DNA from: Paucibacter sp. TC2R-5
GTDB lineage: Bacteria > Pseudomonadota > Gammaproteobacteria > Burkholderiales > Burkholderiaceae_C
Direction of reading: 5' to 3'
Length of the DNA stretch: 64,000 nucleotides
NCBI RefSeq assembly: GCF_025717605.1
Contig: NZ_JAJIRQ010000003.1
Span: forward strand, 124,001 to 188,000
Position 1 is the first letter of the stretch. The number at the start of each line of letters is the position of its first letter. The notes beneath the pieces were generated by a model. The model worked only from the letters and a program-made list of their open reading frames with translations, was not told the origin of the DNA and searched no databases. Shown one piece after another: positions 47,141-55,744 of this stretch. Made by a program: the position numbers and the translations under genes.

Positions 47141-47185
47141 TGGTCGGAACGGCAGGATTCGAACCTGCTACCCCTTGTCCCCCAG
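47141..47185. repeat. attL-like copy of the tRNA-Pro 3' end
   Basis: These 45 bases repeat positions 55700-55744 with one change, T for G at 47169. They cover the CCA end, T-arm and up to the anticodon loop of tRNA-Pro. They mark the left border of the integrated element. A full tRNA cannot be formed here. Confidence 0.85.
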
Positions 47186-47320
47186 GCAATTTTAAGTCAA
47201 TCCACCGCAATCCAACGGTGTCCACAGTTGACTAAAATTCACATATAAATCAACCACTTAACTGAATACATCGTTCGTCACTCATCCACCGCCGTCGTTC
47301 AAAGTACACTCACAGCCAGC

Positions 47321-47353
47321 CCAACGGTGTGGCTAAAGGTGTGGCTAAATTTT
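47321..47353. repeat. Left copy of 33-bp element-end direct repeat
   Basis: These bases are identical to 55595-55627 and contain two tandem GTGTGGCTAA decamers with a 12-base period. They lie just before integrase and at the other end of the element, as expected for integrase arm-type binding sites. They overlap the 5' leader of the integrase gene. Confidence 0.7.
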
Positions 47354-47365
47354 GGAGATGTCGAC

Positions 47366-48730
47366 ATGGCCGTGATTACCGTCAAAGAATTGCAGGCGCT
47401 TAACTTGGCCGACGACGGCAAGCGGATCAGCATGGGCGAATCGATGTATGGCACGGTTCGAGTGGGCAAAGACGGCGCCGTTAGCCTCTACGTGAAATGG
47501 CGATACAAAGCGGGCGGCAAGCTGCGTCAAATTCCCCTTGGCACTTGGAAGGACAAAGGCGGCCAAACCCTCAAAGCACTGCGCGATGAGCGCGACCGGC
47601 TCGCGGTTGAACTGAAGGCGGGCATTGATCCCATTGAGCGCAAGGCCTTGGAGCGACGTGGGGTAGTTGACGCTGCGCAAGTGGCCGCAGCAAAAGCAGA
47701 GGCAGATTTGGCCGAAGCAATGCACGCTCAACGCGCCCGACTGGCGGCCATTGCAGAGCAAGCCGCTAGGCTCACAGTCCGAGGCCTGTTTGGTCAATGG
47801 AAGGCCTTGGAGCTACGCCAGCGGGCAGATAAGGGAGCCGAAGCGGAGCGCGCATTTGAACGCGACGTTTTCCCGCTTATTGGCGACGTCGCTGCCGGCG
47901 ACATAACCAAAGCGCACGTTCAACTCGTAATCGACTCGATGATGACCCGCGATGTGGTCCGGATGACCAAGCGTGTCTTATCTGACTTGCGCCAAATGTT
48001 TGGCTTTGCACTTGACCGCGACCTCGTGGAGGCCGACCCCACCGCACGCATCAAGAAGGCCAAGATCGGCCCCGACGTTGAACGCGACCGGGTACTGAGC
48101 GAAGCTGAGCTTATTTCCTTTTTTGCCAAGTTGCCGGCTGCTGGCTTGGCAGACACTTCCCAATGCGCCCTGCTGATCCAGCTGAGCACACTTGCCCGCA
48201 TAGGTGAGGTGTTAGGAGCACGCTGGGAGCACGTTGATTTTGAGCGGCAAACCTGGGTGTTGCCGACAACCAAGAATGGCAAGGCTCACGCGGTGAAACT
48301 GAACGGTTTTGCTCTGCGCCAGTTTGAACGCCTGCACAAGCTCACCGGCTCGACCGCCTGGTGCTTTCCTGCATCCCGAACTGACGGACCTGTGTGCCCG
48401 AAAACCGTCACCAAACAAGTCGCAGATCGTCAGCGGGTAGCCTCCCCAATGACCGGCCGGTCAAAACAGATTGACGCCTTGACCCTAGCCGGTGGGCATT
48501 GGCGCCCGCACGATCTGAGACGCACTGGCGCCACCTTGATGGCTGACTTGGGCGCCCTGCCCGACGTCATCGAGCGATGTCTGAACCACACTGAAGAATC
48601 CAAAATCAAACGGATCTACCAGCGTGCCAAATATGAGGCGCCGATGAAGGATGCTTGGCGCCTGCTCGGTGAACGGTTGGAACTTCTCAGCGCCAAGCCT
48701 GCGAATGTGCTGACGCTGAAGGTCACATAG
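47366..48730 (+). CDS. int: Tyrosine integrase (P4-like)
   Basis: The 454-residue recombinase has an N-terminal arm-binding domain of the DUF4102/P4-integrase sort (KWRYKAGGKLRQIPLGTW), a SAM-like core-binding domain and the catalytic domain. Catalytic residues are Arg278 (LARIGEVLG), His382 and Arg385 (HDLRR), His408 (NHTEE) and Tyr418 (RIYQR). It would insert the element into the tRNA-Pro 3' end and excise it. GGAG lies before the ATG at 47366. The frame extends 13 codons upstream through the arm repeat but this part has no similarity to integrases. Confidence 0.93.
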   Translation: MAVITVKELQALNLADDGKRISMGESMYGTVRVGKDGAVSLYVKWRYKAGGKLRQIPLGTWKDKGGQTLKALRDERDRLAVELKAGIDPIERKALERRGVVDAAQVAAAKAEADLAEAMHAQRARLAAIAEQAARLTVRGLFGQWKALELRQRADKGAEAERAFERDVFPLIGDVAAGDITKAHVQLVIDSMMTRDVVRMTKRVLSDLRQMFGFALDRDLVEADPTARIKKAKIGPDVERDRVLSEAELISFFAKLPAAGLADTSQCALLIQLSTLARIGEVLGARWEHVDFERQTWVLPTTKNGKAHAVKLNGFALRQFERLHKLTGSTAWCFPASRTDGPVCPKTVTKQVADRQRVASPMTGRSKQIDALTLAGGHWRPHDLRRTGATLMADLGALPDVIERCLNHTEESKIKRIYQRAKYEAPMKDAWRLLGERLELLSAKPANVLTLKVT

Positions 48731-49047
48731 CCTGACTTTTGGGCTGTCTCATTTTCCCCCTGACTATTCCGTCCTAGGGTGTCCATAATGACTCCACTGG
48801 ATGCCCAAAGAACTTTGTTCAAAAAAGGTGGACAGTGGTCAACATGGCCTAAAGAGTTGGGGAGACGCAAAGGTGTATCAGACCCTTGCGCCGCCCCGAG
48901 CCCGCCGAAGCAGGCTGTCTAAGTTCCCACAGAGACAGGCTGAGTTTATGACATCTTCGCAGTCGCTTGTGGAGTCCCTTAGGGGCTTCTGTCGGCGCTT
49001 GCCAAGAGATCGGCGGTTTTTTTAATAAAAACCAAAGAACGCAGCAA
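48731..49047. other. Intergenic stretch between integrase and AlpA-like gene
   Basis: These 317 bases hold no convincing gene. A 74-codon open frame starts at 48801 but its predicted product has no recognisable feature. A T-rich run (TTTTTTTAAT near 49018) precedes the AlpA-like gene. The stretch may hold the promoters and an operator of the early genes. Confidence 0.45.
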
Positions 49048-49263
49048 ATGCATAACCCCACACCTACGCAGCAAGAAATACCAGCGGCTGTTTTGCGAAT
49101 CGCCAGTGCCGGCCCATACCTATCGGTAAGCCGATCGCACCTTTACAACCTCATTGAGCGCAAGGAATTGCCCTTGATTAAGTTGGGTGGCCGCGCCTCA
49201 GGAATCCTGCGCGCCGACTTAGACGCTTGGCTCGCTAAGCAGCGCGCCGCCGCCCTATCCTGA
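49048..49263 (+). CDS. AlpA-like DNA-binding protein (excisionase/regulator)
   Basis: The 71-residue protein has a MerR/AlpA-type helix-turn-helix: YLSVSRSHLYNLIERKELPLIKL, here split as LSVSRSHLYNLIERK and ELPLIKL, then ASGILRADLDAWLAKQR. AlpA of P4-like elements activates integrase or aids excision. The ATG at 49048 starts directly before the domain. It begins a run of closely spaced genes that ends at 51166. Confidence 0.82.
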   Translation: MHNPTPTQQEIPAAVLRIASAGPYLSVSRSHLYNLIERKELPLIKLGGRASGILRADLDAWLAKQRAAALS

Positions 49264-49275
49264 CAGGAGGCCGCC

Positions 49276-49383
49276 ATGAAAACGAATCATGCTGCACCAG
49301 CGGCAGGAAGCGGCGTATCTGTTGGTTCGCATCGCCTTGATTTGGCAAGTGCCCGATGCGTTCCTGAAGGGCTCCACACATGA
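49276..49383 (+). CDS. 35-residue peptide with strong ribosome site
   Basis: The frame reads KTNHAAPAAGSGV and ends EGLHT. A GGAGG site lies five bases before its ATG, 12 bases after the AlpA-like stop. Its TGA overlaps the next gene's ATG (ATGA). It may be a real small protein, or a leader that couples translation of the zinc-finger gene. No family is recognised. Confidence 0.45.
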   Translation: MKTNHAAPAAGSGVSVGSHRLDLASARCVPEGLHT

Positions 49384-54815: not shown

Positions 54816-54949
54816 GGCCCCTTCAACGGTGGGCCGTGCGCGAGGGACACACGCAAGTGTGTGCCGGTTCCTTTTGCCGGTCGACCAACCCCCCCCGCAC
54901 GGTCTGCCACCCTCTTGCTTGGTCGCTAAGGGTGGCAGGTTTAAAACCT
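54816..54949 (+). ncRNA. C4-like antisense RNA / immunity leader
   Basis: A three-way fold is visible: closing stem 54832-54840 with 54896-54904, a hairpin 54847-54852 / 54857-54862 with GCAA loop and a hairpin 54864-54867 / 54877-54880. The 5' part can also pair as GGCCC (54816-54820) with GGGCC (54831-54835). GCCACCCT (54906-54913) is complementary to AGGGTGGC (54929-54936), 30 bases before the GTG of the last gene. This resembles C4 RNAs of P1/P7 phages, whose processed RNA pairs with a site near a downstream start. I judged this from memory of the family; no covariance model was run. Confidence 0.55.
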
Positions 54950-54966
54950 GTTCAAAAGGAGCCAAC

Positions 54967-55494
54967 GTGGCTAACTCCCAGCAATCGAAGACCGGCGCAG
55001 CTGCGCCCACAATGTCAGAACAACTTGCCCGTGAAATCGGCGTAGTTCCAAGCCCGATTGGAATGGTGATCTATGTCGGATCAAGAGCCGCGATTGAGGA
55101 TGAAGGGCTGATCCCTCAAAACGTGGTCTGGCCGCTTGGGCAAGATTCGCTAAGTTGGCGGGTAGGCGACCTAGATTTCAAGCTCAATCGCCGCCCCTCT
55201 GTTGGCTCCAATGCTTGCCAAATATCACGCGAGTTTGGGGAGGACTATTTTCGGATTATTTGCATCCACATCAAAGACCGTCTCGACGCCTCGGGGATGT
55301 ATCGGCGGATGCAAGCTTCGAATCGGGCTGAAATTGAGCGGGCGAATAGTCCTGCTGGCCGGCAGCAGGCGGCCATCATGGCTGCGCAGTATTCGCAGGT
55401 CCTCAAAGATTCCAGCTACCTAGCCTTTAGAGGTCGAGTACTTGACCTTAAATCCCCGCCAAAACGCAATCGGAAGGCCACACCAGCACAGTAA
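54967..55494 (+). CDS. Hypothetical protein at the element's right end, 175 residues
   Basis: The GTG at 54967 has AAAAGGAG before it. The protein has EQLAREIGVVPSPIGMVIYVG, then WPLGQDSLSWRVGDLDF, GEDYFRIICIHIKDRL and a basic end (RNRKATPA). No domain is recognised. By position after a C4-like leader it would be the regulated product, like icd/ant genes behind C4 in P1, but its sequence shows no similarity I know of. A start at the ATG 55012 is possible. Confidence 0.6.
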   Translation: MANSQQSKTGAAAPTMSEQLAREIGVVPSPIGMVIYVGSRAAIEDEGLIPQNVVWPLGQDSLSWRVGDLDFKLNRRPSVGSNACQISREFGEDYFRIICIHIKDRLDASGMYRRMQASNRAEIERANSPAGRQQAAIMAAQYSQVLKDSSYLAFRGRVLDLKSPPKRNRKATPAQ

Positions 55495-55594
55495 GGGCTT
55501 CTCGCCCCGACACCCGAGCCCGGACATTGTTCCGGGCTTTGTCGTTTCTGGACGGCCGCTGGCGACCTACTCGAATCAACAAAGACGGGACCGG

Positions 55595-55627
55595 CCAACG
55601 GTGTGGCTAAAGGTGTGGCTAAATTTT
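55595..55627. repeat. Right copy of 33-bp element-end direct repeat
   Basis: Identical to 47321-47353, in the same orientation. It lies 73 bases from the intact tRNA-Pro. Two tandem GTGTGGCTAA decamers suggest arm-type integrase sites at both ends. Confidence 0.7.
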
Positions 55628-55646
55628 TGGTTCTGCAAGCCAAACG

Positions 55647-55680
55647 AAAAACGGGTTAGCTGCCTAAGCTGCTAACCCGT
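55647..55680 (-). terminator. Terminator supplied behind tRNA-Pro by the element
   Basis: On the minus strand a 10-bp perfect stem (ACGGGTTAGC, 55651-55660 with 55671-55680) is followed by a run of five T. It stands 20 bases downstream of the tRNA CCA end. It replaces the displaced terminator at 47091 and has the same GGGTTAGC core. Confidence 0.75.
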
Positions 55681-55699
55681 TGATTTTATTACTGTTTTT

Positions 55700-55744
55700 T
55701 GGTCGGAACGGCAGGATTCGAACCTGCGACCCCTTGTCCCCCAG
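55700..55744. repeat. attR-like half of tRNA-Pro
   Basis: This part of the intact tRNA matches 47141-47185 with one change and marks the right border of the element. Confidence 0.82.

What the first reader, a model, noticed from the sequence alone, without database searches (positions are those of the whole stretch)
47141..55744. Compact satellite-like element with its own capsid gene at tRNA-Pro
The sequence shows an 8.6-kb element bounded by 45-bp tRNA-Pro repeats. It has an integrase, AlpA-like protein, a zinc-finger plus DUF3987 pair, a Nu1-like packaging protein and an HK97 capsid protein. It has no portal, large terminase, protease, tail, lysis or conjugation genes. Satellites usually steal capsids; some capsid-forming ones carry a fuller head module. 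One capsid gene with a small terminase and nothing else would be a different, more minimal division of labour with a helper phage. It may also be a decayed prophage, but the frames are intact.
Basis: partly seen in the sequence, partly recalled or inferred. Interest (0 to 1): 0.82.

Follow-up and report, generated by a model that had tools for sequence, protein, structure and literature searches.

The report
Phage parasite with a shell gene
This 8.6-kb stretch looks like a genetic parasite of viruses that infect bacteria: it carries a virus-like DNA-packaging start site, a hybrid packaging protein and a single virus-shell gene, and probably borrows every other virion part from a helper virus.

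Summary
An 8.6-kb element (47141-55748) sits in tRNA-Pro; the same tRNA is empty in six same-genus loci. It encodes integrase, AlpA-like HTH, zinc-finger and helicase-like proteins, small terminase (TerS), an HK97-type capsid protein and a phage head-region protein. No portal, large terminase, protease or tail gene was found.

New here: (1) a lambda-like cos site directly upstream of TerS, 80-83% identical to the site in three viral contigs; (2) a mosaic TerS, C-terminal half 78% identical to a phage TerS, N-terminal half not; (3) capsid genes without portal or large terminase recur in related loci, in more than one capsid lineage.

Best reading: a PICI-type satellite that draws a helper's terminase to its own cos and uses its capsid protein to alter the helper's head, as SaPIbov5 Ccm does. 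A lone capsid gene is therefore precedented (SaPIbov5, EcCICFT073, PmCI172): a new variant of a known kind. The capsid gene's role is inferred; in EcCICFT073 the capsid homologue was dispensable.

The parts
47141..47189 (.). attL: partial copy of the 3' end of tRNA-Pro
   Evidence: 96% identical to 55700-55748
55700..55748 (.). attR, inside the intact tRNA-Pro(GGG) gene 55700-55776 (-)
   Evidence: empty site in relatives
47309..47353 (.). arm-type repeat, left: the 33-nt unit 47321-47353 is repeated exactly near the other end and holds two GTGTGGCTAAA words; likely integrase arm sites
   Evidence: function inferred
55583..55627 (.). arm-type repeat, right
47366..48730 (+). tyrosine integrase
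   Evidence: PF00589 4.8e-19, phrog_1 2.4e-54; start ATG 47366 preferred on its ribosome site
49048..49263 (+). AlpA-like HTH (excision/regulation)
   Evidence: PF12728 4.7e-8; phrog_66 excisionase 5.5e-7
49380..49811 (+). zinc-finger primase-type protein
   Evidence: phrog_6088 DNA primase 4.7e-4; relatives in L012, L020
49808..51166 (+). replicative helicase / DUF3987-like protein
   Evidence: phrog_5311 helicase 6e-12; 27.6% to a phage protein annotated DUF3987
51381..51460 (+). lambda-like cos site directly upstream of TerS; core motif 51405-51458
   Evidence: 82.5% over 80 nt to L218 and L219, 80% over 66 nt to L168; lines up with lambda's joined ends; motif absent from 2.56 Mb of random sequence
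51492..51971 (+). small terminase (TerS), mosaic: C-terminal residues 75-159 phage-like
   Evidence: phrog_57 2e-27; 78% to L168 over 75-159; N-terminal half differs
52206..52619 (+). orfF, unknown; its stop overlaps the capsid start (GTGA)
   Evidence: no family reached, no relatives among the loci searched
52616..53818 (+). HK97-type major capsid protein, without protease domain (start 52616 or 52703)
   Evidence: PF05065 3.9e-10, phrog_617 1.4e-14; aligns with the C-terminal part of 605-768 aa phage capsid frames, of which L168's (622 aa) carries a protease part
53837..54205 (+). orfH: homologue of a phage protein encoded just downstream of the capsid gene; likely virion (decoration-type) protein
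   Evidence: 50-59% identity in the 13 best viral contigs, gene order, beta-sandwich model pLDDT 81; no structural match at E <= 0.001
54217..54492 (+). orfI: small homologue of the gene between capsid and orfH in phage contigs L127, L128, L129, L131
   Evidence: 9e-5
54967..55494 (+). orfJ, unknown cargo
   Evidence: no Pfam or PADLOC family, PHROG only at E 0.15

Best explanation
It is a PICI-type satellite of lambda-like (GpA-terminase) cos phages. Shown by sequence: insertion at tRNA-Pro, integrase/AlpA module, own replication proteins, a lambda-like cos site, a TerS whose C-terminal half matches such a phage, and a single capsid gene without portal, TerL or protease. Inferred: when a helper infects, the island excises and replicates into concatemers. 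Its TerS docks on the helper's large terminase through the shared C-terminal half and brings it to the island's own cos, so that island DNA is packaged. Its capsid protein, with orfH, joins the helper's own capsid protein, portal and protease in the procapsid, as SaPIbov5 Ccm does, and shifts the head to a size suited to the island at the helper's expense. Tails and lysis come from the helper.
For: Insertion and empty sites. PICI-type gene set. The cos site aligns with L168 (80%/66 nt), with L218 and L219 (82.5%/80 nt; these two have the same TerS protein, so they count as about one phage) and with lambda. The exact cos core occurs in only 3 viral contigs (one of them is the contig of L168), and in all 3 it lies upstream of TerS and a GpA-type TerL, followed by a portal in the two contigs that reach that far. 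The motif regex hit the window, 8 of 15 TerS-bearing satellite-like loci, 6 of 11 GpA-phage-type loci, 0 of 11 capsid-only loci without TerS, 0 of 16 full-head-type loci and 0 in 2.56 Mb of random sequence. TerS C-half 78% identical to L168, dN/dS 0.12 with dS near saturation at 1.6. The capsid protein lacks the protease half of L168's polyprotein. Lone capsid genes are kept by selection in two measurable pairs: L073/L080 dN/dS 0.07, L078/L082 0.31. Precedent: Ccm.
Against: No excision, packaging or particle was observed. No helper-type genes were found in the host genome: no GpA terminase, no PF05065 or PF04860 hit (the PF05065 search also missed the element's own capsid gene, so it is weak). 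The capsid protein is only 22-33% identical to its matches among the loci compared, so co-assembly with a given helper cannot be judged. Its predicted structure failed (pLDDT 30). In EcCICFT073, the nearest cos-type analogue, the capsid homologue c1499 had no phenotype. A shortened delta domain, discussed for Ccm, cannot be shown here because the start codon is uncertain. dN/dS of the window's own capsid gene could not be measured, and the TerS-bearing pair L070/L074 is too similar (3 changes, ratio 0.77) to show selection. 7 of 15 TerS-bearing satellite-like loci and 5 of 11 GpA-phage-type loci did not show the motif; some of these are short contigs.
Confidence: 0.6

Rival explanations
1. The island builds its whole shell from its own capsid protein and borrows only portal, protease, large terminase and tail: a stripped-down capsid-forming PICI.
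For: A capsid protein of near full length with a phage head-region partner gene (orfH); elements with capsid, portal and large terminase and/or protease of their own are common in the same family, so self-made heads exist nearby.
Against: Those elements' capsid proteins form one separate clade (100/99) that excludes this one. No protease or portal gene for a self-made head. Ccm, the studied lone capsid protein, cannot form shells alone.
Confidence: 0.2
2. The capsid gene is dispensable or only a weak anti-helper decoy; the island is packaged as concatemers in full-size helper heads through cos and TerS alone.
For: EcCICFT073: c1499 and c1500 deletions did not affect transfer, and packaged DNA was phage-sized. 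PICMIs are packaged as concatemers.
Against: The reading frame is intact, and lone capsid genes in related elements show purifying selection in two pairs (L073/L080 0.07; L078/L082 0.31).
Confidence: 0.2
3. A decayed prophage that has lost most of its genes.
For: Capsid, TerS and orfH are of phage origin.
Against: The frames are open; no remnants of portal or TerL; integrase-AlpA-primase layout of satellites; TerS halves of different affinity; the lone-capsid arrangement recurs in other genomes, and one clade for those capsid proteins is rejected (AU p 0.0007).
Confidence: 0.05

Closest known systems
SaPIbov5 and other cos SaPIs with Ccm (PMC5052747 passages; PMC8569155 abstract and first part of the Discussion)
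   Same: PICI with cos packaging and a single HK97-fold capsid homologue; no protease identified in the island
   Different: Gram-positive host. Here a mosaic TerS and a phage-head-region protein (orfH) sit beside it; capsid-size effect not tested here
EcCICFT073, a Gram-negative PICI (PMC6092414 passages)
   Same: int, AlpA, primase, lambda-like cosN, capsid homologue plus decoration protein
   Different: Transfer needs helper TerS; two cos copies; its capsid gene had no phenotype. Here one cos directly followed by an island TerS. Sequences not compared here
PmCI172 (PMC6092414 passages)
   Same: Gram-negative PICI with a capsid homologue; small heads were seen
   Different: Mu-type helper; sequences not compared here
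capsid-forming PICIs (PMC11389934 passages; 16 loci of this type here: L018, L020, L054-L062, L064-L068)
   Same: integrase, primase-type module, own HK97 capsid protein
   Different: The 16 loci carry a portal with large terminase and/or protease, and their capsid proteins form a separate clade. That a complete head module defines the family is recalled, not read
PICMIs (PMC10803314 passages)
   Same: integrase, AlpA, DUF3987-type primase
   Different: They integrate next to fis and do not encode capsid-remodelling genes

Membership tests
PICI (Gram-negative) | integrase and att insertion with direct repeats | tested here: met
PICI (Gram-negative) | AlpA-type regulator | tested here: met
   PF12728 4.7e-8; PF05930 6e-4, just below its cut-off
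PICI (Gram-negative) | own primase/replication module | tested here: met
   zinc finger phrog_6088 4.7e-4 and helicase phrog_5311 6e-12, both remote
PICI (Gram-negative) | own packaging signal and/or TerS, no complete virion or lysis genes | tested here: met
PICI (Gram-negative) | helper-induced excision, transfer and interference | not testable with these tools
   needs experiment
capsid-forming PICI | complete head module (portal, protease, TerL with capsid); definition recalled | tested here: not met
Ccm-type capsid redirection | lone HK97-type capsid homologue in a PICI | tested here: met
   (by sequence; structure model failed)
Ccm-type capsid redirection | shortened delta domain | tested here: inconclusive
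   start codon uncertain; alignment
Ccm-type capsid redirection | small capsids, helper interference | not testable with these tools
   needs experiment
PICMI | insertion next to fis, no capsid-remodelling gene | tested here: not met
   tRNA-Pro insertion and a capsid gene
P4-like satellite | P4 gene set (recalled) | not tested
   no directed search was made; no such family stood out in the Pfam and PHROG scans of the ten proteins

The most novel reading that the evidence does not exclude
Burkholderiales hold a recurrent class of cos satellites reduced to cos + mosaic TerS + one capsid gene. The capsid gene was captured more than once from different phages, and each satellite swaps its own shell protein (with a decoration-type protein here) into the helper's head rather than merely tipping its size, so that the satellite particle is a chimera with the satellite's own shell on the helper's portal, motor and tail.
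Probability: 0.22. Interest if true: 0.7.

Novelty: new variant of a known kind. Interest (0 to 1): 0.52.

Why it matters
The mosaic TerS and the shared cos name the helper type (GpA-terminase cos phages) and the part of TerS expected to bind it, so the question of how a satellite captures a foreign terminase and head becomes directly testable. Elements with a portal-bearing head module and lone-capsid elements in the same bacterial family also allow a comparison of how satellites divide head building with helpers.

Tried and rejected
Direct relatives of the capsid protein by back-translated patterns: none in genome contigs or viral contigs with the single sequence. With a 3-row alignment one locus each; the genome one comes from a contig of the same length and match as L012's.

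The whole element against plasmids: only an 80-base match. 48731-55700 against phages (distant mode): no match. TerS protein against phages: none. Capsid protein against phages: only Vibrio phage VP882 (two records, 22.6%). The helicase-like protein in viral contigs: no pattern match.

Capsid structure model failed (pLDDT 30) and was not used. The orfH model is fair (pLDDT 81), but no structural match reaches E 0.001 and the best ones are mixed (for example XepA, TM about 0.65, E 0.008), so 'decoration protein' stays an inference from gene order and a sub-threshold Bbp16 hit (E 0.016). The phage homologue in L127 also has a weak 'major tail protein' hit (phrog_9522, 3.9e-5), which points another way.

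orfF: no family reached, no relatives among the loci searched. A resemblance by eye to winged-helix tails of primases was not confirmed.

Co-resident helper: see the Against line. Across 18 same-genus genomes only G787 has a GpA-type TerL (45%).

Errors and limits: my greedy ORF caller missed TerS in L069 and L071 (found), the capsid gene in L054 and some head genes of the full-head-type loci (no TerL was called in L056, no protease in L054 and L057). The absence of portal, TerL and protease in the lone-capsid loci was therefore rechecked in all six frames with profiles built here. For minus-strand references I trimmed the start codon instead of the stop (one residue lost). In one search the hit in L210 lies on the far side of the TerS frame, so only 7 of those 8 satellite hits are directly upstream of TerS. 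The regex was written after seeing the window, L063, L074, L168-L170, lambda and the listing, so those rows are not independent tests. The Pfam batch scan shows 25 of 56 families and the PHROG one 25 of 111, so a weak single hit could be hidden. Rows left out of the capsid tree as near-copies: L045, L055, L067; L054 had no call. Of the 35 genomes, six with long capsid frames (657-730 aa: G469, G471, G554, G563, G655, G679) were not fetched as regions. The tree warns of long branches, the window's among them.
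Full report
WHAT IS THERE. The window holds an 8.6-kb insertion at tRNA-Pro(GGG). Direct repeats of 49 nt (96%) bound it. The right copy is the 3' end of the intact tRNA gene. Six same-genus loci were fetched (of 18 genomes searched). All six hold tRNA-Pro and the right flank, and only the outermost part of the element matches there. In four (L115-L118) a 52-61 nt piece of the window's left flank, 81-90% identical, lies within 4 bases of the tRNA. 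In L119 and L120 the left flank gave no match. One caveat: the element's inner right end itself resembles the native stretch beside the tRNA, so the left-flank match is short but not the only sign of the empty site. A 33-nt repeat found exactly at both inner ends (47321-47353, 55595-55627), each holding two copies of GTGTGGCTAAA, is a likely set of integrase arm sites (inference).

GENES. The ten proteins were scanned against Pfam and PHROGs: integrase, AlpA-like HTH, zinc-finger primase-like protein, helicase-like protein, TerS (phrog_57, 2e-27), orfF (nothing convincing), HK97-type capsid (PF05065 3.9e-10, phrog_617 1.4e-14), orfH (phrog_5707 8e-8, unknown function), orfI (nothing), orfJ (nothing convincing). 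No portal, large terminase, protease or lysis family appeared; a six-frame check of 46500-56500 with portal, TerL and protease profiles built here agreed. 'DUF3987' rests on a 27.6% match to a phage protein so annotated, not on Pfam.

PACKAGING. TerS residues 75-159 are 78% identical to the TerS of the viral contig held as L168, while the first 58 residues fall outside the significant alignment. The window's N-terminal half instead lines up with those of L063 and L169. Just upstream of TerS, window 51395-51460 matches L168:7619-7684 at 80%. Window 51381-51460 matches two more contigs, L218 and L219, at 82.5% over 80 nt; these two share one TerS protein and count as about one phage. In all three contigs the site lies directly upstream of TerS and a GpA-type large terminase; L168 then continues with portal and protease-capsid polyprotein. 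The same spacing of elements is seen across lambda's joined ends. The names cosQ and cosN are recalled. The exact core is in 3 contigs of viral contigs. A longer pattern with up to 2 mismatches is in 1 of 399 family genomes, the host itself. A looser motif hit the window once, 8 of 15 TerS-bearing satellite-like loci (7 directly upstream of TerS), 6 of 11 GpA-phage-type loci, 0 of 11 capsid-only loci without TerS, 0 of 16 full-head-type loci, and 0 in 2.56 Mb of random sequence. Some of those rows were used to write the motif (see Tried and rejected).

CAPSID. The capsid protein is 33% identical to its nearest relative, L013, and 22-28% to the others compared. It aligns with the C-terminal part of longer phage capsid frames (605-768 aa); L168's was scanned and its first part is a protease. 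That half is absent here. orfH is 50-59% identical to a protein in the 13 best viral contigs. In L127, L128, L129 and L131, which look like one phage type, the order is capsid frame, orfI-like, orfH-like; in L130 orfH-like follows the capsid frame. The element thus holds a subset of a phage head region, in slightly different order.

OTHER GENOMES. Order search: 11 of 399 genomes matched the capsid protein, the host included. Family search with a 3-row profile: 35 of 399, the host included. Of the capsid-bearing loci I fetched and read, 16 carry a portal with large terminase and/or protease (not every head gene was called in each), 10 look phage-like, and 17, plus the window, carry a capsid gene with no portal, large terminase or protease found (rechecked in six frames). 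Four of the 17 (L013, L045, L063, L070) are short or cut contigs, so absence is unproven there. A Pfam scan of 124 neighbour proteins from 16 of these 17 loci (L045 not given; proteins under 100 aa, capsids and integrases left out) showed no portal or terminase family among the 25 families listed of 56. A TerS search found 22 of 399 family genomes, 25 places, the window included. I fetched 18 new loci: 8 have a GpA-type terminase (phage-like), 7 have an integrase and no such terminase or portal, 3 have neither. Five places were already held (L045, L069, L070, L071, L074); one, G679:C49, was not fetched. TerS and a capsid gene without terminase or portal occur in L045, L069, L070, L071 and L074, in L063 (found by its capsid gene), and in L200, L203, L204 and L208, whose capsid frames are of the phrog_4523 'major head and protease' type and, in the first three, include a protease part. 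L045, L070 and L074 are near-copies. L205, L207, L210 and L212 have TerS and an integrase, but no capsid gene was identified.

ORIGINS. In a 40-row capsid tree the proteins of the portal-bearing satellites are one clade (13 rows, 100/99). The lone-capsid proteins (17 rows) fall in several places among phage proteins: six changes of label on the best tree, at least two forced by well-supported branches, and one clade rejected (AU p 0.0007). The window joins L013 only (99/95), on a long branch. Lone capsid genes look to be under purifying selection in two pairs: L073/L080 dN/dS 0.07 with about 161 silent and 56 replacement changes; L078/L082 0.31. The TerS-bearing pair L070/L074 has 3 changes (ratio 0.77) and tells nothing.

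HOW IT LIKELY WORKS. See Best explanation. The packaging half is strongly implied by sequence: the satellite keeps the part of TerS shared with the helper type, has a different DNA-binding half, and holds its own cos. That the C-terminal half of such TerS proteins binds the large terminase and the N-terminal half DNA is recalled. The capsid half is by analogy. Ccm replaces helper capsid protein at pentamers, makes small shells and cannot form shells alone (PMC8569155 abstract and first part of the Discussion; PMC5052747 passages). Against this, EcCICFT073's capsid homologue had no phenotype and packaged DNA was phage-sized (PMC6092414 passages).

NOVELTY. Lone capsid genes in PICIs are in print, so this is a new variant. 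My searches turned up no title or abstract on a cos + TerS + lone-capsid satellite in Burkholderiales. They cover open-licence PubMed Central papers only, so absence in print is not shown.

Noticed in passing
L012:7566-9614 and L063:3192-4469: Two capsid-bearing loci without portal or terminase have a tail tape-measure-like gene a short way downstream of the capsid gene (PHROG tape-measure families): perhaps satellites that carry both a shell gene and a tail-length gene.
   Followed up: partly
L054-L062, L064-L068, L018, L020: Satellites with capsid, portal and large terminase and/or protease are common in this family and its order, 13 tree rows of their capsid proteins forming one clade; two such elements in one genome were seen for G467, G622 and G686.
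   Followed up: partly
window 55643-55699: The inner right end of the element resembles the native stretch downstream of tRNA-Pro in relatives (70-83% in alignments running on into the tRNA), so the island may bring a replacement terminator for the tRNA it occupies.
   Followed up: partly
window 54501-54653: Inverted repeat, 25-nt arms 103 nt apart, between orfI and orfJ; possible origin or terminator.
   Followed up: no
L073, L076, L078, L080, L082 and relatives: A second group of lone-capsid elements without TerS and without a match to the lambda-like cos motif; their packaging route is unknown.
   Followed up: no
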